Assembly (NCBI RefSeq): GCF_000803265.1
Contig: NW_014575400.1
Location: 124,001 to 188,000, forward strand
DNA length: 64,000 nt
Origin: Ordospora colligata OC4
Lineage: Eukaryota; Microsporidia; Ordosporidae
Direction of reading: 5' to 3'
Shown: positions 3,342 to 60,266 of the stretch, piece by piece
Position numbering within the stretch: the first letter of the stretch is position 1
How the letters are laid out: the number at the start of each line of letters is the position of its first letter
Program-made: the position numbers and the translations under genes
The notes under the pieces: generated by a model
What the model saw: only the letters and a program-made list of their open reading frames with translations
What the model was told of the DNA's origin: nothing
Databases searched by the model: none

Positions 3342-4151
3342 TCATACATTATTTTGTGATTCAATAGCAATAGCAATATTTCGTATTATCTCTTGAAAAA
3401 TACTCATTAAAAACACATATTGACTATTACACTTGTCTTGTATCTTCCGATTTGTGGCTGTGACTGATGGTTTACTGTCCATGTATGCACCATCATCCTT
3501 ATAATCAATCATATTATCTACTTGCCTACGGTCGTATAAGTCTGTATCTACACCGCTTTGTATGTCACTGTCCATAATACTTTCTCTATAAACATTTGTA
3601 TTGTTTGCATTCCTAGCTATTGAATCTGCTTCCATATCCTGTGTGCTTACTTGATCTGATACATATTCTGCATCAGTACGCCCTGGAAAGTTCTTGAATG
3701 TCTTTACAACGAACAGGAAGCTATCAGGTGAGTTATCAGGCGTACTATCAGGTGATGGGCATTCTGAAAACTTTACTTCCCCGTTTATTTCCTGCATACA
3801 CAATGAGTTGTATCCTATCATGTTTTTACATCTCGGGGGATTCTTAAAGTAAAATCCATGATCAGGTACTTTATCTACTGACTCATCATACACTAAATTT
3901 CCACTACTTAAATCAATTCCAATATCTCCTTTATCTGTCCCAAGATTAAATCCATTTGTTCGATTATTCAATCTCCACTCAAATGCATAGTCCTCTATCA
4001 CTGAGCCTATACCTTCATTCTCTAATTCTAAGGTCAAAGGGCTCAAATACTTACCACTGCTCACAGACCTTATAGCAACCCTCTCTCGACAAAACACTCC
4101 ATACTCCATCAGCAAGAGTACATACATCATTGCACAGCGCCTGGCACACAT
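3342..4151 (-). CDS. Secreted protein with beta-trefoil (ricin-B-like) look
   Basis: 269 aa from the first ATG; the open frame extends to a TTG at 4178. The N-terminus is hydrophobic (MMYVLLLMEYGVFC), consistent with a signal peptide. The next 120 residues have trefoil-like features: VAIRSVSSGKYLSP, FEWRLNN, a Cys pair (RCKNMIGYNSLC) and regular beta-strand spacing, as in the secreted ricin-B-lectin-like families of microsporidia. The C-terminal half is acidic and polar, then ends in a hydrophobic stretch (QYVFLMSIFQEI) that could be a membrane anchor. No CCC signal is obvious. The fold is an inference; secretion is better supported. Confidence 0.5.
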   Translation of the reverse strand: MCARRCAMMYVLLLMEYGVFCRERVAIRSVSSGKYLSPLTLELENEGIGSVIEDYAFEWRLNNRTNGFNLGTDKGDIGIDLSSGNLVYDESVDKVPDHGFYFKNPPRCKNMIGYNSLCMQEINGEVKFSECPSPDSTPDNSPDSFLFVVKTFKNFPGRTDAEYVSDQVSTQDMEADSIARNANNTNVYRESIMDSDIQSGVDTDLYDRRQVDNMIDYKDDGAYMDSKPSVTATNRKIQDKCNSQYVFLMSIFQEIIRNIAIAIESQNNV

Positions 4152-15529: not shown

Positions 15530-16855
15530 ATGAGAGAAATAATATCATTGCATGTTGGGCAAGCAGGAGTCCAGATTGGAAATGCATGCTGGGAGTTATT
15601 CTGTATGGAGCATGGGATAATGCCTGATGGACGACTTGGTGAGAACCGGATGGATGATGAGAGCGCAGAATCTTTTTTTTCGCAGACGAGTGTTGGAACG
15701 TATGTTCCCAGGACGCTGATGGTTGATCTTGAGCCTGGAGTGCTTGAAAGTATCAAGAGTGGAAGATACCGCGATCTTTATCATCCAGGACAGTTGATAT
15801 CTGGGAAGGAAGATGCAGCAAACAATTATGCACGAGGACATTATACGGTTGGAAAGGAGATTATTGAGCCTGCAATGGAGCAGATAAGAAGGATGGCAGA
15901 CAACTGCGATGGATTGCAAGGATTTTTGATATATCACAGCTTTGGAGGAGGAACAGGATCAGGATTTGCATCTTTGATGATGGACAGGCTAGCATCAGAG
16001 TATGGAAAGAAGAGTAAGCTTGAATTTAGTGTGTATCCGGCGCCTAAGATAGCAACAGCAGTAGTTGAGCCTTACAACAGCATACTGACGACGCATACAA
16101 CACTCGACTACTCTGATTGTTCATTTCTTGTTGATAATGAGGCAATATATGATATGTGCAGGAACCTAGGGATACAGAGGCCGTATTACACGGACATAAA
16201 TAGGATTATTGCGCAAGTGGTATCGTCGATAACTGCATCGCTGAGATTCCCTGGATCATTGAATGTTGATTTGACTGAGTTCCAGACGAATCTGGTGCCA
16301 TATCCACGAATACACTTCCCGCTTGTTGCATATTCGCCTATGCTGTCACGGGAGAAGGCAGCGCATGAGAAGCTGAGCGTGCATGAAATTACGAATGCAT
16401 GCTTTGAGCCGCAGAACCAGATGGTGCGATGCGACACAAAGAAAGGAAAGTACATGGCATGTTGCCTACTATTCCGAGGAGAAGTGAATCCGAAGGAGGC
16501 GAACAGTGCAACTGCTAATGTGAAGGCGAAGAGGACGAACCAGTTTGTGGAGTGGTGCCCTACTGGGTTTAAGGTAGGAATAAACAGCAGGAAGCCAACT
16601 GTTCTTGAAGGTGAAGCCATGGCAGAAGTGTCTAGGGCTGTGTGTGCGTTGTCTAATACAACTGCTATTTCTGAGGCATGGAAGAGATTGAACAATAAGT
16701 TTGACCTTATGTTTTCGAAGAGGGCGTTTGTGCACTGGTATGTTGGAGAGGGAATGGAAGAAGGAGAGTTCAGTGAAGCCAGGGAAGACCTTGCAATGCT
16801 TGAGGATGACTATCAAAGGATATCATCTAATGCAGAGCCTACTGATGAGTATTAA
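15530..16855 (+). CDS. TUB1: Alpha-tubulin
   Basis: Microtubule subunit for the intranuclear spindle. 441 aa, full length. Starts [22 protein letters not shown]. The GGGTGSG nucleotide-binding loop is intact ([11 protein letters not shown]), as is the alpha-specific DxxR-type region ([18 protein letters not shown]). Position 40 is not Lys (the loop reads DDESAESFF), so the acetylation site is absent. The tail is short and ends EPTDEY, keeping the terminal Tyr. CCCC lies 8 bp before the ATG. High similarity to the Encephalitozoon protein, from memory, supports the placement of this genome. Confidence 0.97.
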
Positions 16856-21766: not shown

Positions 21767-22831
21767 TTATTTATTGTATATTTTGTTGAGTTCATAGCCT
21801 TTTGCAGATGCCCAGGAAATATTGATTCCGTTATTTGTATCTATTTTCTTGATATCCTTGAGGTCGTTGATGCCAAGGGCATTGATGAATGAAATCAGAT
21901 AGAAGATGTTTCTGCAGTCGGATGAATCCAAAAGACTGCATTTCTTGTAGAACTGGTCTTTTATTTCCCTCATGTTTGTTTCTGTGCCTCGTACAATCTT
22001 TGTGAATTCATCATGGAAGTATGAGAGCAGATACAGACTGTCAATGTTATTAAGAATTGGTCTGCTTTGTACATTCAAGAGCTTTGCAATGATCTTCTGT
22101 GCACAGGACTCTTGTTGTTCCTGGCTATTGACTGCACAATCCTCCATATCATCAGCATTGTTGATTGCTGTTATGCCAAGATTGATTGAGTCTGAAAGGA
22201 TTTCCCCGTTATTTTTCAGTACTGAAACCTGTGTGCTTGCACCGCCCATATCTACGACGCCAACAGTTTTGTTGTTGTTGTTTCCCATTTCCTTACTTGA
22301 TATTAACAATGACATCAGTGCAAGCCTGCCCTCCTCGTCTCCGCTAACAATTTTTGCTTCTTTAAGGTTGTATTCATTCAATTCGTTCCTTATGAGCTCA
22401 AGAATGTGATCTGTACGCGTAGTATCCAATGCTCGAAGTCCAGCCGTTCCATAAAACCCCATAGGAATTGTCTTAATATTATTGTAGAATGGCTGAGCAT
22501 GCATGAGCAATTCTTCCAGCGATGATTTTATTTTACTGTCCTCTTCCATGCTTGCGATTCCAGGTGTGTTTGTAAATAATCCTTGATGCCTGATTTCTTG
22601 TCCTACAAATCCATATACTTCGAGCCTTGTTCCTGTTGAGCCTGCATCTATCACTGCGGTGTATGTCATTCCTGTTGATGGAGCAGACTGTATAGAAGAT
22701 GAGATGGCCAACACAACACTAGTGTATAACACACATACAAGCACACTTACATGCATCGTTTGTTTTGCAATGCAATCAGAGAAATCTGTGTTTTGTTTTA
22801 TGTTCGACACATAATGCCTAGTAGAGTGCAT
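21767..22831 (-). CDS. Secreted/ER-Golgi nucleoside phosphatase, GDA1/CD39 family
   Basis: Hydrolyses nucleoside tri- or diphosphates. 354 aa, shorter than usual (about 450). Apyrase conserved regions: ACR1 DAGSTGTRLEVY (about 69), ACR2 YGTAGLRAL, ACR3 GDEEGRLALMSLL (shortened), ACR4 VVDMGGASTQVSV. A hydrophobic stretch at 26-48 (MHVSVLVCVLYTSVVLAI) is a signal peptide or anchor; the start may instead be at that Met (22756). It could be the Golgi GDPase needed for glycosylation or a secreted enzyme acting on host nucleotides; sequence alone does not decide. Confidence 0.88.
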   Translation of the reverse strand: MHSTRHYVSNIKQNTDFSDCIAKQTMHVSVLVCVLYTSVVLAISSSIQSAPSTGMTYTAVIDAGSTGTRLEVYGFVGQEIRHQGLFTNTPGIASMEEDSKIKSSLEELLMHAQPFYNNIKTIPMGFYGTAGLRALDTTRTDHILELIRNELNEYNLKEAKIVSGDEEGRLALMSLLISSKEMGNNNNKTVGVVDMGGASTQVSVLKNNGEILSDSINLGITAINNADDMEDCAVNSQEQQESCAQKIIAKLLNVQSRPILNNIDSLYLLSYFHDEFTKIVRGTETNMREIKDQFYKKCSLLDSSDCRNIFYLISFINALGINDLKDIKKIDTNNGINISWASAKGYELNKIYNK

Positions 22832-52323: not shown

Positions 52324-52395
52324 GGGGGGTTAGCTCAGTGGTAGAGCGCTTGCTTAGCATGTAAGAGGTCGCGGGTTCAACTCCCGCATTCTCCA
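52324..52395 (+). tRNA. tRNA-Ala (AGC)
   Basis: 72 nt. Acceptor GGGGGGT pairs with ATTCTCC (GU pairs tolerated), anticodon stem CTTGC/GTAAG with loop TTAGCAT gives AGC. D-arm TAGCTCAGTGGTAGAGC, T-arm GCGGG-TTCAACT-CCCGC. No intron. Confidence 0.94.
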
Positions 52396-52555: not shown

Positions 52556-55204
52556 ATGAAGCCAATGTTACTGATGATGCTGTTTGCATTCTCAATCAAC
52601 AAAAGGGTGTTCTATATCAACCTGAAGGATGTCAAGTCTGGAAGTGACTTCCTGAGTCAATTGTTTGAAAAGTCAGGCATCCTCAATACCATATCAAGTA
52701 CAAAAAGCAGTCTTGGTGAGTCACCAGATGCTGCTGTACCTACAGGACAGGATGATCAAGCAGAACAACAACCACTTGATCAAAAACCTGCAGATCAAGC
52801 TGATGAACCAAAATCAGGCAAAGCCAAACAAGATGAGCAACAAGCATCAGAAAAGACACTCTCAAACAAAAAAGATACATCAGCAGAGCAGAGCAAACAA
52901 AAGACTGATCAAGAAACACAAGCTACTGATGAACAAAAGGTTAAAGAAAAAGAAGCACAGAAAGTAAAAGATAAAGAAGAAGAAGAAGCTGAAGCTGAAA
53001 AGAAAAAACAAGAAAAGCAAGCCAAGGACGAACAGAAAGCAAAAGACAAGGAAGAACAGAAAGTAAAAGATAAACAAAAACAAGAAAAGACCGAACAAGA
53101 AAAGCAAGCCAAGGACGAACAGAAAGCTAAAGAAAAAGAGGAGCAGAAAAAAAAAGATAAGGAAGAAGCAGAAAAAAAGAAGCAAGAAAAAAAGGACAAA
53201 GATGAACAGAAAGCTAAAGAAAAAGAGCAACAGAAATCCAAGAAACAAACACAAGAAAGTAATAAAAGCGAAGCAGACAAAAACAATCAATCTGAACAAG
53301 CAGATAACAAAAAACAAGATAAGCAAAGTGTAACACGTGACATTAAAAAAGATGCTAGTAAAGAGCCAAGTACTGTTACATCTGCAGATTCAAAGAACAA
53401 AACACAAGCAAGTAATAAAGCTCCACAAACCAAAAAGAACGATGAAAGCATAAATTCAGTCCTTGAAAAATCAATTTCAGATGGTTCATCAATTACTACA
53501 TCAAGTATGAACACATCAAATAAGATTCACACATTAGTTACTAGCATTGGAAGCATTGAGTCTATACCATCGTCAATTATGTCAGAATCAGTGCCATCAA
53601 CAGTATCTGCACCTTTGATCTCATCAATGTCACTTTCTTCTGCATCTATGAATTCTATGACCTCATCAATATCTTCAGCAATTATGTCTTCAATGGCATC
53701 AGCTTCTATTATGTCACACAGCATTTCTGCTGCTCCTCAATCAACGATATCTTCTCTGATGAAAAAGATGCCTGAAATAGAAAAAGTTAAGGAGCTCAGC
53801 CCGTCAGACATTAATAAAATCTTGGAAAGTTGTGAAGACTGCGAAAGAGTCGATCAGGTGTTGGTATACAGAAATGGTGATTCTTTCACGGACTACTCCG
53901 GAAATATAAAATTTGAAGAACGAGATGGAAAGCTAGTCGATGCATCAGGATTGTTCATTGGCAAAGACTGTGGATGCCCAAAAGAAGAGATTCCAGAAAT
54001 GGGCAAACTATCTGAGACAGGATTGTATCAGGATAAACAGGTTAGCAGCCAGAGCTGCCAGAAACAAGCAAATGCCATTGAAAAGATATACTCTTCAGTG
54101 GATGTCATCCAGAGTCAAAGCATGGCAATGTCTATCCATTCAGAGTCCACTTACTCAAGTGTGATGCCAATATCGAATACAACAGGAAGTGCATTATCTG
54201 GGTCTGTTTCATCTTCCGTTAGTATTCCAAGCAGTGTGTCCAGTAATACATCATCAAGTAGTTCAGGTTCAAGCGGTACATCTCCTTCAAGTATTTCACA
54301 AACTACAAGTGTTATGCAGTCTTCACCAGCAACAAGTGCATCCTCCACATCTAATGCTACACAAACATCTAACATTGCACAGGCAAGTACGAACAATCAA
54401 CAATCAACACAACCTGTCGCAAATACCAATTCAGTAATTTCAAACAGTCCACAGGCGCCATCACCTAGTGTTGCAATGCTGCCTGAAACAGTTCAGCAAG
54501 CTCCAGTGGCAACTATTTTATCACAACCCAGTAATATAAATGCACAAGCGATTGAATTGCAGGATACAAACAAAGGCTCGCATACACAAAATAAGCCATG
54601 CAGTGTATCACCAAGCATATCCATTAAGGCCATAAAGGTTAAGTACAATGACAGTTGCAAGGATGAATCTGATGTCGATGATTGTAAGAAGACGATTGAA
54701 CCTGAAAGAATAAATGAAGTAACAATAACAGCACCACCAGAGACAATAACAAAAACCGAAAAGATTGAGCTTCCTCCAACTACAATTATAAAGGAACTGA
54801 CGATCGTCAAGCCACCATGCACCATTGAAAAAGAAGTGATAATCACACAAGAGATTACACAAGAACCAGAAATAATCGTAGAGCAGAAGACTGTAATTAA
54901 GCCAACAACAATTGTTGAATACAAGACAATCGAAATCACAACCACGGCAACAGAGATCATGCATGAGACAACAACAGTTACACAAACAAAGGAAGCAGAA
55001 GTTCCTATATCGACTGTTTACGTGGAGGCATTAAGGAAGACAAAGATACCTGATGAGGGATATGTGAAAACGATCAACACCACTATAATACTTGAAGATC
55101 CTGAGGAGATGCCTGAAGAGATAGAATGTGAGGAGGAATGCGAATGCCAGGGAGATAAATGCATGAATCCATGTGGCAAGATACGGTGTGTGTCTTCTGA
55201 ATAG
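52556..55204 (+). CDS. Secreted low-complexity protein A of the tandem trio (spore-wall/polar-tube candidate)
   Basis: 882 aa. Hydrophobic N-terminus (MLLMMLFAFSI). Residues ~60-250 are Lys/Glu/Gln repeats (KDKEEQKxKEK-type), ~300-400 Ser/Met-rich, then a shared module at ~433-493 (VLVYRNGDSFTDYSGNIKFEERDGKLVDASGLF..GKDCGCPK) flanked by Cys pairs (ESCEDCE, SQSCQ). Next a Ser/Thr/Gln region, and a C-terminal part with repeats of the type EVTITAPPETITKTEKIELPPTTI, ending in a Cys-rich tail (CEEECECQGDKCMNPCGKIRCVSSE). Such Lys- and Ser-rich secreted proteins with terminal Cys are typical of polar-tube and spore-wall proteins. The exact family (PTP or SWP) is not recognised. Confidence 0.75.
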   Translation: MKPMLLMMLFAFSINKRVFYINLKDVKSGSDFLSQLFEKSGILNTISSTKSSLGESPDAAVPTGQDDQAEQQPLDQKPADQADEPKSGKAKQDEQQASEKTLSNKKDTSAEQSKQKTDQETQATDEQKVKEKEAQKVKDKEEEEAEAEKKKQEKQAKDEQKAKDKEEQKVKDKQKQEKTEQEKQAKDEQKAKEKEEQKKKDKEEAEKKKQEKKDKDEQKAKEKEQQKSKKQTQESNKSEADKNNQSEQADNKKQDKQSVTRDIKKDASKEPSTVTSADSKNKTQASNKAPQTKKNDESINSVLEKSISDGSSITTSSMNTSNKIHTLVTSIGSIESIPSSIMSESVPSTVSAPLISSMSLSSASMNSMTSSISSAIMSSMASASIMSHSISAAPQSTISSLMKKMPEIEKVKELSPSDINKILESCEDCERVDQVLVYRNGDSFTDYSGNIKFEERDGKLVDASGLFIGKDCGCPKEEIPEMGKLSETGLYQDKQVSSQSCQKQANAIEKIYSSVDVIQSQSMAMSIHSESTYSSVMPISNTTGSALSGSVSSSVSIPSSVSSNTSSSSSGSSGTSPSSISQTTSVMQSSPATSASSTSNATQTSNIAQASTNNQQSTQPVANTNSVISNSPQAPSPSVAMLPETVQQAPVATILSQPSNINAQAIELQDTNKGSHTQNKPCSVSPSISIKAIKVKYNDSCKDESDVDDCKKTIEPERINEVTITAPPETITKTEKIELPPTTIIKELTIVKPPCTIEKEVIITQEITQEPEIIVEQKTVIKPTTIVEYKTIEITTTATEIMHETTTVTQTKEAEVPISTVYVEALRKTKIPDEGYVKTINTTIILEDPEEMPEEIECEEECECQGDKCMNPCGKIRCVSSE

Positions 55205-55447
55205 ATACTGGATCTGAGTTGAATTAAATTGATATAATATCTGAGTTCTTGAAAAGTCTAATGATTTATGATATAATACCTGAGTTTTTTAAAAAGTCAA
55301 TGGTTTATGCATGGTTAGAATCAAAGAATTTCCATCTAGGAAGTAAATCACATAACTGAAAGATTTGACGGATATCAACAGTAAAACATGTTTTGATGTG
55401 ATAACTTGAAACAAATGAGATATAAGCAATGTTTTTGCGAAACATAA
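55205..55447. other. Spacer between secreted genes A and B
   Basis: 243 bp, AT-rich, dominated at its start by a 39-bp tandem duplication. No gene seen. Confidence 0.6.
55231..55308 (+). repeat. 39-bp tandem duplication
   Basis: Two consecutive 39-nt copies (55231-55269 and 55270-55308), each starting GATATAATA(T/C)CTGAGTT and ending AATG(A/G)TTTAT, with scattered mismatches. Confidence 0.8.
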
Positions 55448-57085
55448 ATGAAAACAGCATTGGTGTTGGTGATGTTCAGATACTTTGTACGAGCAGATGT
55501 GTTCAAGGAGGTTAATTTGGAGCGTCTTTTGAGCAGTGATTCTAAGGACACACAGTCTGACGTAATAGGTAGCTCATCTTTAAGCGAAGGCTCGAAGATG
55601 CCATCGATGCTCATGGGACAAGAGAAAGACGCTAGCGTGGAAAAGCCAAGCGATGTTCCGATTATTATTATATCTTCTGAAGAGAGCATGAAAGGCAAGA
55701 CAGGGCAAGAGCGTGAGCAGCAGGTTATTTCAATTGTGAAAGGTGTTCTATCTGATCAGAACATCAAGGCGGATCTTCAGTCTCTATCTGATGGGAATGC
55801 AAATGAGATTAATGATTCTGGAAGATTCAGAGAGAGTGATGAGAGTGCTAGAATTCCTGGAGTGGTGTACACGCCATCAGTAGCAAATATTGCAGGGGGA
55901 AGTAGCAATGAATCATATTGGACTAGCATAATTGACGATGACGGAAAGGTCAAGAAGGTTAAAGTGAATGTCAAGGTTATGACGATTGTGCAGGATATTG
56001 AAGAGCCAAAAGGGCAAGGCAAGGATGATAAGAATCTAAATGGTGTGAATGGATCAGAGGAGAAGCAAGAAGCGACTCAGGGGAATGCAGATGTTTCTAC
56101 CAAGGTATCTACAATTGGAGTGAATGATAGGAAGGAAAAAGATAAGGAGAAAGAGAAAGAGAAAGAGAAAGAAGAAAAGGAAAAGGAAAAGAAAGAGAAA
56201 GAAAAGGAAAAGAAAGAAAAAGAAGAAAAGGAAAAGAAAGAAAAGGAAAAGAAAGAGAAAGAAAAGGAAAAGAAAGAGAAAGAAAAGGAAAAGAAAGAGA
56301 AAGAGAAAGAAGAAAAGGAAAAGAAAGAAGAAAAGGAAAAGAAAGAAGAAAAAGAGAAAAAAGAAAAGGAAAAGGAAAAGGAAAAGGAAAAGAAAGAAAA
56401 GAAGGAGAAAGAAGGTAATGATAAAGACAAGAAAAACAAGGAAGACAGTGATAAAGATAAAGATAAAAAAGAGAAGCTAAAACAGAAGGAAGATAAGAGA
56501 AAAAATGAGAAGGACAAAAAAGATGATGATGAATCTTCAGATGCATCCTCTATAAAAAGTATCTTTGGATTTTCAGATAAAGGCAAAGACACAGAGTCTA
56601 AGAAAGAGGATATAAACGAAAATGATAGTAGCAATAAGGAAGAAAAAGAAGGCAAGAATAGGAAAGAAAAGAATGGTGGCCGAGACGACAAGGATAGGAA
56701 GGATAAAGAGGAAAAGAAAGAAAACAAAGATAAGAAGGAAGATAGGAAGGAAAAGAAAGACCAAGAAAACAAAGATAAGAAGGAAGATAAGAAGGAAGAT
56801 AAGAAGGAAGATAAGAAGGAAGATAAGAAGGAAAAGGATGAAAATAACAGCGATAAGAATGATGATAAGAATAACAAGCGAGAAGGAAAGAAGGAAGATA
56901 AGGAAGAAAGAAGTCCTGAAATGAACGATTTGTTTTATGTTCTGAAAAACATGCCTGAGAGAACTAATCCCAACAAGCCTGGTGGAAAATTGTTTGTCGA
57001 AGGAAACTTTGCAGCTGTCAAGGAAGAAAAGCTGAAAGATAAGAAGTTTACCTTCTCTGGATATATCCAGGCAGCAAGCACATAA
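55448..57085 (+). CDS. Secreted Lys/Glu-repeat protein B of the tandem trio
   Basis: 545 aa. N-terminal hydrophobic start (MKTALVLVMFRYFVRADV) as signal peptide. Residues ~230-325 are nothing but K and E in KEKEKKEKE order, followed by D/N/K-rich tracts with 12-nt tandem units. The last ~35 residues (GGKLFVEGNFAAVKEEKLKDKKFTFSGYIQ) correspond to the end of the module in A and C (G-K/R-L...G-x-F...K..T-x-SGxIQ). No Cys in the mature part. Probable structural, secreted protein; long charged repeats make alignment with other families unreliable. Confidence 0.75.
   Translation: MKTALVLVMFRYFVRADVFKEVNLERLLSSDSKDTQSDVIGSSSLSEGSKMPSMLMGQEKDASVEKPSDVPIIIISSEESMKGKTGQEREQQVISIVKGVLSDQNIKADLQSLSDGNANEINDSGRFRESDESARIPGVVYTPSVANIAGGSSNESYWTSIIDDDGKVKKVKVNVKVMTIVQDIEEPKGQGKDDKNLNGVNGSEEKQEATQGNADVSTKVSTIGVNDRKEKDKEKEKEKEKEEKEKEKKEKEKEKKEKEEKEKKEKEKKEKEKEKKEKEKEKKEKEKEEKEKKEEKEKKEEKEKKEKEKEKEKEKKEKKEKEGNDKDKKNKEDSDKDKDKKEKLKQKEDKRKNEKDKKDDDESSDASSIKSIFGFSDKGKDTESKKEDINENDSSNKEEKEGKNRKEKNGGRDDKDRKDKEEKKENKDKKEDRKEKKDQENKDKKEDKKEDKKEDKKEDKKEKDENNSDKNDDKNNKREGKKEDKEERSPEMNDLFYVLKNMPERTNPNKPGGKLFVEGNFAAVKEEKLKDKKFTFSGYIQAAST
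56144..56415 (+). repeat. 272-nt pure purine tract in gene B
   Basis: No pyrimidine on the top strand from 56144 to 56415; built from GAAAAGGAAAAGAAAGAGAAA-like units that encode Lys/Glu. The reverse strand accordingly carries a Ser/Phe/Leu-only shadow frame. Confidence 0.95.
56774..56833 (+). repeat. 12-bp tandem repeat, five copies, in gene B
   Basis: GATAAGAAGGAA repeated five times without interruption, encoding DKKE units; length may vary among strains. Confidence 0.9.
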
Positions 57086-57195
57086 TCAAATAAATAATTA
57101 GGCAAACTCTATTATAAAGTATTGCAGATGATGTATTGATTATGAAACATTTGTTTTGAACATTGTTTTAGCAGAATTGATTGGTGTTTGCAGGC

Positions 57196-58173
57196 ATGAG
57201 AGGATTGCATGTGTCAGGGATCATTTCGATTATGTGGATTATCATAGCACATGCCAGTGCAGTTCATGAATTCAACAGAGATGATGAAAGCACGGTTGAA
57301 ATAGTCTTGTTGAATGATGAATCAATTAACACACAGCAAAGACACTCACAAGCAAATACGATTCGCAATCCAAAGAAAAACACAGACAAAGCATCCAAAG
57401 ACAAAGCATTGAGAGATCTTCTAACAATCCTTCTTGGACGCATCCTTACAGAAAAAGCAAGTGTGACAGGAAGCAAGTCAGCTGATGAACCGCATCTCAA
57501 CTCTATACAAACCAATAAAGATACACAAATCATTGCAAATAACAAAGATATCACACAACATGATAAAGAAGTATCATCAAATGACGCTAAGACAAGAATA
57601 GAGATGCTTAAGAGCATCGAGCACATTCCCATGAACTACAATTTACTCTGTACATTTTTTCAGAATATCGGCTTCATCCGAGACAAGCTCAAGAATAAAC
57701 CTGGAATAGGAGTTGTTCGTAATGTCATTGTATATGACAATGGTAATCAACTGATCGATTACTGGAGTAGATTAGTATTCAAAGAGCAGGCAGGCAGGCT
57801 TATTGATGAAACTGGGTATTTTGAGGGAATCAAAGTTAGTAAGTTTGAAGATGTACTAAAGGATGGTAAGATGACAGTGTCTGGACTGATTCAAAAACGT
57901 GATATTTCTAGTATGGAAGCTTTAGATACACTCAATACTATAAAGCTGCTGCTTAATGAGGTTGCAAATGAAAAAAAGATTCCACTTCACAACCTGATCA
58001 ATGAAAGCTGCACATTATCAACAGTAGAAGAAGTGGTGTTCTATGCAATGCATCCTTCAATAAATAATGAAGAAAGTGCATATGTGTGCATATGTTCAGA
58101 CTCATTCTGTAAAGAGCCATGCAAAGAAGTCATTCTAATGAAGAAAAAGGACATAGTAAACAGAAATGGCTAG
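57196..58173 (+). CDS. Secreted protein C of the tandem trio
   Basis: 325 aa from ATG 57196; the longer frame opens with TTG. Signal peptide (VSGIISIMWIIIAHASAV). Polar, Asn/Lys/Ser-rich region to ~140, then the shared module at ~172-236 (VIVYDNGNQLIDYWSRLVFKEQAGRLIDETGYFEGI...DGKMTVSGLIQ), and a C-terminal Cys cluster (NESCTL..YVCICSDSFCKEPCKEV). It has the highest module density of the three, and Cys at the end as in A. Candidate partner of A and B in the spore wall or tube. Confidence 0.75.
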   Translation: MRGLHVSGIISIMWIIIAHASAVHEFNRDDESTVEIVLLNDESINTQQRHSQANTIRNPKKNTDKASKDKALRDLLTILLGRILTEKASVTGSKSADEPHLNSIQTNKDTQIIANNKDITQHDKEVSSNDAKTRIEMLKSIEHIPMNYNLLCTFFQNIGFIRDKLKNKPGIGVVRNVIVYDNGNQLIDYWSRLVFKEQAGRLIDETGYFEGIKVSKFEDVLKDGKMTVSGLIQKRDISSMEALDTLNTIKLLLNEVANEKKIPLHNLINESCTLSTVEEVVFYAMHPSINNEESAYVCICSDSFCKEPCKEVILMKKKDIVNRNG

Positions 58174-58278: not shown

Positions 58279-60198
58279 TTAATTGCTTATTGTGGCTTTC
58301 GTAATGTCCAGAATGTCTTCAAACTCAAGCTTCTCATCGGCCATTTGATCCAGAATGTCTTTGAATGCATTGATATCGAAATTCTTGTTTTCTTTGCCAA
58401 ACCTAACATTTATCTCCTGGTTCTCAGCCTCCTTCTTCCCAATAACACACACAAATGCATATCCTTGTGTTTCTGCTGTCCTTATCCTCTTGTTCAGAGT
58501 GTTATTGTCATCAATCACATCAACCCTAAATCTAGAGAGCAAAACCTTCACTCCATTAACATATTCTGCATTTCCCATGCTAACAATAGCAATCTGTCTC
58601 GGTGACAACCAGAATGGCAGCCTCTTCCCAAAGCTCTCAAGAATAATTGCAATCATTCTTTCTATGCTTCCAAGAATCGCCCTGTGTATTATAACAGGCG
58701 TTTTTTGCTGTCCATCGCTGTCACGGTATTCCAATCCAAACCTCTGTGGAAGCTGAAAGTCAAGCTGAATAGTTGCACACTGTATTGCCCTTCCTAATGC
58801 ATCATGGAGGATAATATCAATCTTAGGTCCATAGAATGCTCCATCGCCCTCATTGATTTTAAATGGAATTCCACACTCATCCATGGCATCAGAAAGCGCC
58901 TTTTCTGCATCATCCCATTCATTAATAGACCCAAGATACTGGGTAGGTCTTGTGCTCAATCCCAATTCAAACCTAAACTTGAATATTCGATAAACAAACC
59001 TTAGAAACTCAATGCATCCCTTAATCTCATCCTTCACTTGCTCCTTAGTGCAGAATATATGTGCATCATCCTGTTGAAATCTTCGTACCCTGGTTAATCC
59101 TGTAAGTGCGCCAGTCAGTTCGTTTCTGTGCAGTACTCCAAAATCCGCATATCTCAATGGAAGCTCTCTAAAACTGTGGTCCTGGTGCTTGAACATGACA
59201 CAATGACCAGGGCAGTTCATAGGCTTCATTGCAAACTCATTTCCCTCGATAATAAACATATTCTCCTTATAATTTGTAAAGTGTCCACTTTCTTCCCATA
59301 GCTGTGTGCAAAAAATGTTTGGCGTTATAACTTCTTTAAATCCTCTTTTCCTATACTCTCCTCTCAAAAACTCAATCAACGTGTTGTAAATAATCGCTCC
59401 ATTAGGAAGAAAGAAGCACGATCCTGGTGAATACTTTGAGAAAAAAAACAACTCAAGCTCAGTGCCTATTCTCCTATGGTCTCTTTCTTTTGCTTCTTGC
59501 TTCTTCCTTAAATATTCTTGCAGTAGCTCTTTCGATGGAAATGCAATTCCGTACACCCTTTGTAACGACTCCCGATTCGGATCATTCAAAAAGTATGCGC
59601 TACCATTCTTCAGCACCTTAACTGCCTTTATCATCCCAGTCGATCTTACATGAGGCCCAAGACACATGTCCACAAACTCTCCTGATTTATAGACAGTACT
59701 TCCTCCTTCAATTTTATTCAGAAAATGTGTCTTAAATGGATTGTCCTTATACATCTCCAACAACTCATTTCTACTCTTTGCACTTTTTTCAAACCTTGCA
59801 TTTCTCTTTATAATTCTATACATCTCATCCTCAATCTTCTTATAATCATCAGACGAAATCGCCTCAGAAACATGCACATCGTAGAAAAACCCTTCTTCTG
59901 TCGCAGGCCCATGAGATAGCCTTGCTCCAGGATACAGGTTCAACAGTGCATTTCCTAGAACATGTGCTGACGAGTGCCAGAATACCTCCCTTCCTTCAGC
60001 ATCATCAAACCTCACAAACTCTAGCACACAATCATTCTGTATTTCTGTGCACATATCGCTCAAAACACCATCGATCTTGCACACCACGACATCATTATCA
60101 CCTTTTCTGGTTTCATTGTATACATCATATGCACTCTTACCCTTTACAATCTTGATCTCTTCTTCTCCAAGCCTTACTTTCAAACATATTTCATTCAT
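58279..60198 (-). CDS. THS1: Threonyl-tRNA synthetase
   Basis: 639 aa. TGS-type N-terminal domain, editing domain with HSSAHVLGNALLNLYPGARL, class II core: motif 2 region RVRRFQQDDAHIFC, motif 3 GSIERMIAIILESFGKRLPFWLSPRQIAIV, and an anticodon-binding domain at the end. The CCC directly before MNEICLKV (60198) fixes the start; the open frame extends five codons further. Cytosolic; no mitochondrial targeting. Confidence 0.95.
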   Translation of the reverse strand: MNEICLKVRLGEEEIKIVKGKSAYDVYNETRKGDNDVVVCKIDGVLSDMCTEIQNDCVLEFVRFDDAEGREVFWHSSAHVLGNALLNLYPGARLSHGPATEEGFFYDVHVSEAISSDDYKKIEDEMYRIIKRNARFEKSAKSRNELLEMYKDNPFKTHFLNKIEGGSTVYKSGEFVDMCLGPHVRSTGMIKAVKVLKNGSAYFLNDPNRESLQRVYGIAFPSKELLQEYLRKKQEAKERDHRRIGTELELFFFSKYSPGSCFFLPNGAIIYNTLIEFLRGEYRKRGFKEVITPNIFCTQLWEESGHFTNYKENMFIIEGNEFAMKPMNCPGHCVMFKHQDHSFRELPLRYADFGVLHRNELTGALTGLTRVRRFQQDDAHIFCTKEQVKDEIKGCIEFLRFVYRIFKFRFELGLSTRPTQYLGSINEWDDAEKALSDAMDECGIPFKINEGDGAFYGPKIDIILHDALGRAIQCATIQLDFQLPQRFGLEYRDSDGQQKTPVIIHRAILGSIERMIAIILESFGKRLPFWLSPRQIAIVSMGNAEYVNGVKVLLSRFRVDVIDDNNTLNKRIRTAETQGYAFVCVIGKKEAENQEINVRFGKENKNFDINAFKDILDQMADEKLEFEDILDITKATISN

Positions 60199-60202
60199 TT
60201 GA

Positions 60203-60205
60203 GGG
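60203..60205 (-). promoter_or_regulatory. CCC signal fixing the ThrRS start
   Basis: On the minus strand CCC lies 4 bp before the ATG at 60198 and after the ATG at 60213, so the shorter form is favoured. Confidence 0.5.
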
Positions 60206-60266
60206 CATTGCATCTCAAATAATCTTTATTTAAACTTCATGCACAAATATTATATTCATTTACATA

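What the first reader, a model, noticed from the sequence alone, without database searches (positions are those of the whole stretch)
52556..58173. Tandem trio of secreted low-complexity proteins sharing one module: candidate undescribed spore-wall or polar-tube locus
Genes A, B and C lie in tandem on the same strand, each with a signal peptide and different low-complexity bodies (K/E/Q and Ser; pure K/E; Asn/Lys). A and C share VxVYxNGxxxxDY...F.E..G(K/R)LxDxxGxF and B carries the end of the same module (GKL..GxF...TFSGYIQ). A and C end in Cys clusters while B has none. Head-to-tail placement with a shared module points to local duplication and cooperative assembly, as with polar tube proteins. 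I do not recognise the module as a named family.
Basis: partly seen in the sequence, partly recalled or inferred. Interest (0 to 1): 0.75.

Follow-up and report, generated by a model that had tools for sequence, protein, structure and literature searches.

The report
Undescribed secreted microsporidian protein family
Three neighbouring genes of a tiny fungal parasite, probably of water fleas, appear to encode secreted proteins, two of which are clear relatives built on a small domain with no named family; they are plausible but unproven parts of its spore coat or its infection tube.

Summary
The three genes are real and intact: A 52556-55204, B 55448-57085, C 57196-58173, all + strand. The window's nearest named relative is Ordospora pajunii, so the source is probably O. 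colligata. The module shared by A and C is far above chance: a profile of C and nine relatives hits A at E 1.6e-14. In A it lies in one compact predicted alpha/beta domain (pLDDT 87, pTM 0.81) without a Pfam, NCBIfam or convincing PDB match. A and C also share a C-terminal CxCx4CxxPC spacing, though a profile of that tail does not link them. B has no Cys and may keep the last part of the module; this link is weak. All three genes have O. pajunii homologues with consecutive tags; C relatives occur in four Encephalitozoon species. No other module copy was found in the genome. PTP2 and MICSWaP lie elsewhere, and the domain does not look like the ricin-B lectin of PTP4-6. A spore-wall or polar-tube role is a guess from apparent leaders, conserved cysteines and a layout like that of PTP gene pairs.

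The parts
52556..55204 (+). Gene A, 882 aa: short hydrophobic leader, K/E/Q body, Ser-rich bodies, domain, Thr/Pro/Ile strand-like stretch, Cys tail
   Evidence: relatives P0012 (O. pajunii) 80% and P0013 30% over query residues 430-882
53753..54130 (+). Gene A residues 400-525: confidently predicted alpha/beta domain containing the module
   Evidence: AlphaFold2 pLDDT 87.4, pTM 0.81
53837..54061 (+). Gene A residues 428-502: shared module
   Evidence: 77 of 78 residues (428-505) identical in O. pajunii P0012 against 126 of 185 in the Ser body that follows
54701..55045 (+). Gene A residues 716-830: PPxT / TxT strand-like stretch, T+I+V+E up to 73% of 60 residues
   Evidence: residues 691-850 are 134 of 160 identical in P0012
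55127..55189 (+). Gene A residues 858-878: C-terminal Cys cluster with CxCx4CxxPC
   Evidence: all six Cys invariant in the three rows A, P0012, P0013
55448..57085 (+). Gene B, 545 aa, no Cys, pure K/E stretch, conserved islands
   Evidence: only two relatives found, P0014 (O. pajunii) and P0015 (jgi)
55856..55999 (+). Gene B residues 137-184, a fully conserved island
   Evidence: 48 of 48 identical to P0015
56132..56536 (+). Gene B residues 229-363: K/E rod, length-variable
   Evidence: a 60-residue window of K and E only; tandem repeats; gapped between P0014 and P0015
56981..57070 (+). Gene B residues 512-541: possible remnant or part of the module (weak)
   Evidence: tail 488-545 is 55 of 58 identical in P0015
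57196..58173 (+). Gene C, 325 aa: leader, variable segment, domain, Cys tail
57697..57915 (+). Gene C residues 168-240: shared module
   Evidence: pLDDT 78-88 in the blocks 171-210, falling to 47 in block 221-230
58087..58122 (+). Gene C residues 298-309: CxCx4CxxPC
   Evidence: all six Cys of C invariant in the 10 rows
52324..52395 (+). tRNA-Ala(AGC) that bounds the cluster on the left
58279..60213 (-). Threonyl-tRNA synthetase (by its Pfam domains) that bounds the cluster on the right

Best explanation
A and C are two old tandem paralogues of one apparently secreted, so far unnamed protein family of the Ordospora-Encephalitozoon line. Each carries one small alpha/beta domain and a C-terminal Cys cluster; B is a Cys-free, K/E-rich neighbour that may hold a cut-down copy of the domain. 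Most likely mechanism (inferred): the proteins enter the secretory pathway during spore formation, the domain acts as a binding or docking unit, the Cys tails lock the proteins into a disulphide-linked extracellular layer, and the charged or Ser-rich stretches act as spacers, with B as the uncrosslinked spacer. The layer would be the spore wall or the polar tube. Shown: genes, A-C homology, domain conservation, conserved even Cys set of C. Inferred: secretion, disulphides, place in the spore, cooperation.
For: A-C homology. Domain of A predicted with confidence, while a flanking body drifts: A module 77 of 78 identical to O. pajunii, Ser body 126 of 185. All six Cys of C invariant in 10 rows, and all five Cys of A's domain and six of its tail invariant in 3 rows, as disulphides in an oxidising compartment would need. 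Three relatives with consecutive tags HK407_08g13280/13290/13300 in O. pajunii. Layout like PTP1-PTP2 and PTP4-PTP5, reported as adjacent pairs, and Cys-poor PTP3 beside Cys-rich PTPs (PMC10229552, PMC10468886, passages).
Against: No proteomic, expression or localisation datum was found for any of the three: searches by the tags I could name or guess found no paper. Signal peptides were judged by hydropathy only, and B's leader is weak. A's and C's Cys tails agree in spacing but not by profile. B's link to the domain is weak, and absent against A. A and B relatives were not found in Encephalitozoon, so the trio is seen in Ordospora only; the search for A scored only part of its candidates.
Confidence: 0.45

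Rival explanations
1. Host-exposed secreted proteins: A, B and C are released into the host cell or the space around the parasite and act there, with the domain as the binding part and low-complexity stretches as drifting surface.
For: Apparent leaders without later strongly hydrophobic segments; relatives found only in Ordospora, Encephalitozoon and unnamed sources; no confirmed match in the prokaryote and viral collections.
Against: A's domain and the tails are strongly conserved rather than fast-evolving; C relatives occur in Encephalitozoon as well as Ordospora, whose hosts differ widely (established knowledge), which suits a structural role better than a host-specific one.
Confidence: 0.25
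2. Secretory-pathway residents: C and perhaps A work inside the parasite's ER or vesicles, for instance in packaging spore proteins, and are not part of the finished spore.
For: C is mostly not low-complexity and has a conserved, partly helical stretch after the module.
Against: No ER-retention-like C terminus is seen in A, B or C (inspection); the long Ser-rich and K/E bodies of A and B suit an extracellular matrix better (inference).
Confidence: 0.15
3. B is unrelated to A and C: a separate K/E-rich protein that merely lies between two paralogues, its tail resembling the module by chance.
For: Whole-ORF score E about 1; no match of the tail to A beyond chance (654 of 2000 shuffles) and none elsewhere in a whole-genome search with the tail at E<=10; hhalign probability under 50%.
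Against: Tail against C: 0 of 2000 shuffles; against the A+C profile 0 of 160 column shuffles; first of 965 window segments after A and C; tail 55 of 58 identical to P0015.
Confidence: 0.4

Closest known systems
Polar tube proteins PTP1 and PTP2 (adjacent genes)
   Same: Adjacent genes, one product K-rich, conserved Cys (PMC10468886, PMC10229552, passages)
   Different: The PTP2 family PF17022 matches once in this genome, on contig C6, and A, B, C do not match it; none is proline-rich like A. algerae PTP1 at 32% (A has 42 Pro in 868)
PTP4 and PTP5 / ricin-B-lectin family
   Same: Adjacent, weakly alike pair; Encephalitozoon PTP4 has 6 Cys like C
   Different: PTP4-6 are reported as ricin-B-lectin proteins with a beta-trefoil domain (PMC10759460, passages); the A domain is predicted as two helices, five strands, a helix, two short strands and a long helix. 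No direct structural comparison was made
PTP3
   Same: Cys-poor, charged, proposed scaffold (passage), like B in composition
   Different: PTP3 has more than 1100 aa; B has 545 aa and a pure K/E window of 60 residues; no PTP3 sequence was compared
MICSWaP spore wall family (PF17018)
   Same: Microsporidian spore-wall label (recalled; the tool gives only the name)
   Different: Its only match in this genome is on contig C2; none in A, B or C
PTP7 of Anncaliia algerae
   Same: Lineage-specific secreted protein with 6 Cys (passages)
   Different: Its only reported orthologue is in Tubulinosema ratisbonensis; its sequence was not compared here

Membership tests
Family defined by the A/C module (new, this report) | Significant match of both members to one profile | tested here: met
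   A against the C-relative profile E 1.6e-14
Family defined by the A/C module (new, this report) | B as a third member | tested here: inconclusive
   E about 1 for the whole ORF and chance against A, but first of 965 window segments after A and C
PTP2 (PF17022) | Match over the curated cut-off | tested here: not met
   No Pfam match at E<=0.1 in A or B, and in C only Gastrin below its cut-off; the genome's PTP2 is on C6
PTP1 | Proline-rich, acidic, 13-19 Cys | tested here: not met
   A: pI 5.06 and 15 Cys but 42 Pro of 868; B 10 Pro of 529, C 7 of 303, cleavage sites assumed; features
PTP4/PTP5/PTP6 (ricin-B-lectin) | Beta-trefoil lectin domain | tested here: inconclusive
   The A domain model has another order of elements; no ricin-B structure is in the rows shown and none was compared directly
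PTP3 | More than 1100 aa, charged, few Cys | tested here: not met
   B has 545 aa, A 882; A has 15 Cys and C six
MICSWaP (PF17018) | Match over the curated cut-off | tested here: not met
   None in A, B, C; single match on C2
Polar tube or spore wall protein in general | Located in extruded tube or spore wall | not testable with these tools
   No localisation or proteomic datum found in the searches made

The most novel reading that the evidence does not exclude
The trio is a dedicated extracellular assembly of the Ordospora-Encephalitozoon line, built on a microsporidia-only domain with a fold not yet in the Protein Data Bank: A and C are disulphide-linked subunits that dock through the domain, and B is a length-variable K/E spacer whose part-domain completes or caps the A/C domain.
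Probability: 0.15. Interest if true: 0.7.

Novelty: new variant of a known kind. Interest (0 to 1): 0.42.

Why it matters
The spore wall and the polar tube are how microsporidia survive and enter cells, and their parts list is incomplete because the proteins diverge fast. A small conserved domain inside drifting low-complexity proteins is a handle that searches with whole proteins can miss. C homologues in Encephalitozoon, some labelled with unlikely enzyme names, can be read as one family with A, and the domain is short enough to express and solve. If the products are absent from spores, the family is still a conserved, apparently secreted one without a name.

Tried and rejected
Pfam and NCBIfam on A, B, C: only matches below the curated cut-off (Gastrin 16.9 against 22.2 bits, TolA, TrlF, RelB). 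Pfam on the 11 module rows: one stray match, VMAP-M20, E 0.024 in 1 of 11 rows. I considered MORN-like beta hairpins from the GKL..G.F spacing; no MORN match appeared, so I dropped it.

Spread outside microsporidia: 60 viral and 137 prokaryote stretches matched a pattern, none was confirmed. Plasmids, with C: no match.

N-terminal likeness of A (VFYINLKDV), P0013 (VFTINLNDV), C (VEIVLL) and B (VFKEVNL) is too short to test; seen and left out of the argument. Bacterial promoter and terminator patterns were under the shuffled mean.

Literature: besides the tag searches, listings only. PMC9997559 (O. colligata population genomics) holds no 'polar tube', 'spore wall' or 'signal peptide' in its main text. 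PMC10158259 (Encephalitozoon assemblies) holds no 'guanylyltransferase' or 'geranyl' in its main text. The O. colligata genome paper was not held.

The search for A relatives scored only the 7986 candidates sharing most words, so absence of A from Encephalitozoon is not shown. Rows dropped: P0001 (the window's own C) and P0005 (near-copy of P0006) from the alignments; P0005, P0006 and P0010 from the 11-row module alignment.
Full report
The observation. Searches give three intact reading frames on the + strand: A 52556-55204 (882 aa), B 55448-57085 (545 aa), C 57196-58173 (325 aa), with gaps of 243 and 110 bases. A tRNA-Ala lies 160 bases before A, and a threonyl-tRNA synthetase gene on the other strand ends 105 bases after C. 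The window is part of a 2,279,121-base genome in 13 contigs. The closest named relative of C is from Ordospora pajunii at 70%, and the taxonomy lists two Ordospora species, so O. colligata is the likely source; that is an inference.

A and C are homologues. C as a query finds A in the whole genome at E 2.2e-8 and no third place at E<=0.001; A finds C at 1.2e-7, plus one match to its K/E/Q body at E 0.05. A profile of C and nine relatives (residues 130-325) hits A at E 1.6e-14 among 340 window ORFs. The Smith-Waterman score of A's module against C is 109; the best of 5000 shuffles is 55. The distant relatives P0011 and P0013 find the same two genes and no third at E<=10. A tree of 11 modules separates three A rows from eight C rows with support 100/99; P0013 sits on a long branch, so its place is unsure. 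P0013 and P0011 come from unnamed organisms. Both Ordospora genomes have A and C, so the split is older than they are, and it is probably older than the split from Encephalitozoon (inference).

The domain. An alignment of 13 rows gave a confident model of A residues 400-525: pLDDT 87.4, pTM 0.81, two helices, five strands, a helix, two short strands and a long helix. The C model is poor as a whole (pLDDT 51), but its module shows a similar run of strands; the two models were not superposed. Ten columns are invariant across the 13 A and C rows, all within the module. No curated family passes its cut-off for A, B, C or the module rows, and no solved structure matches convincingly by sequence or fold. 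The prokaryote and viral collections gave no confirmed relative.

What is kept and what drifts. Between the window and O. pajunii P0012, A's module is identical at 77 of 78 positions and its Cys tail at 31 of 32, while the Ser body that follows is identical at 126 of 185. P0012 starts at about residue 355 of A, so A's leader and K/E/Q body could not be compared. In B against P0015 (jgi), segment 137-184 is identical at 48 of 48, the tail at 55 of 58, the second K/E body at 34 of 69 aligned. P0014 (O. pajunii) and P0015 appear to differ only in the length of the K/E stretch. C's module against O. pajunii P0002 is less strict, 56 of 73, with the helical part 41 of 50, the tail 29 of 35 and the variable segment 47 of 85. 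All six Cys of C are invariant in 10 rows. A's five domain Cys and six tail Cys are invariant in three rows.

The Cys tails. C's pattern CxCx4CxxPC, taken from C relatives, occurs in A's tail; 125 of 200000 shuffles of the last 32 residues contain it, and of 340 window ORFs only A and C do. P0013 has the same pattern with one residue more. Against this, a profile of C's tail gives A's tail -2.2 bits, and 1340 of 4823 scored shuffles do as well. Shared origin of the tails is likely from position and spacing but not proven.

B. The evidence is mixed. Against: whole-ORF E is about 1, hhalign probability is 38.5% and 48.9%, the tail does not match A (654 of 2000 shuffles reach the score), and the tail finds only itself in the genome. 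For: 0 of 2000 shuffles against C, 0 of 1858 scored shuffles (2000 made) against the A+C profile, 0 of 160 column shuffles by hhalign, and first place among 965 58-residue segments of 122 window ORFs after A's and C's own pieces, score 24.3 against 18.0 for the next. I give B about 60% to be a remnant or part copy.

Composition.

Function. Tag-based paper searches found no paper. The UniRef label of the E. hellem C homologue P0006 begins 'Spore wall protein' and is cut off; others bear labels such as geranyltransferase (P0005) or guanylyltransferase (P0008). These are names that disagree with each other. The best-supported reading is a secreted, disulphide-stabilised structural family; the choice of wall, tube or host is open.

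Known families. PTP2 and MICSWaP each match once in this genome, on other contigs. PTP features come from passages of PMC10468886 and PMC10229552; PTP4-6 as ricin-B-lectin proteins from passages of PMC10759460. A, B and C resemble these in layout; apart from the two Pfam families, PTP sequences were not compared.

Score. The family is real and unnamed, with a confident domain that has no convincing match in the libraries at hand. Lineage-specific secreted proteins are common in microsporidia (established knowledge), and no datum places these in the spore. Interest 0.42.

Noticed in passing
window 3342-4151 (-): 269-aa protein with a leader-like start and an opening that looks like a ricin-B lectin (by eye; no Pfam match at E<=1), about ten ORFs before what looks by eye like alpha-tubulin (15530-16855). 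From recall, PTP4/PTP5 lie near alpha-tubulin in E. cuniculi; PMC10759460 reports O. colligata as the exception in the PTP4 and PTP5 clades (passage). It may be a diverged PTP4/PTP5 relative.
   Followed up: partly
window 21767-22831 (-): Apyrase-like protein (GDA1_CD39, E 2.6e-20) with a hydrophobic stretch right after a second ATG at residue 26; possibly secreted.
   Followed up: partly
window 52556-53617 in gene A: The O. pajunii record P0012 begins about 355 residues into A; either its annotation is cut short or the first part of the gene differs there.
   Followed up: no
window 55230-55309: A 39-base direct repeat of 2.1 copies between A and B, starting about 25 bases after A's stop.
   Followed up: no
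P0014 and P0015 (gene B relatives): Two B proteins that appear identical except for K/E stretch length (478 and 515 aa), which suggests length variation between isolates or assemblies.
   Followed up: partly
C relatives P0005, P0006, P0008: The same family bears the labels geranyltransferase, Spore wall protein and guanylyltransferase in public records; the enzyme labels look unfounded.
   Followed up: no
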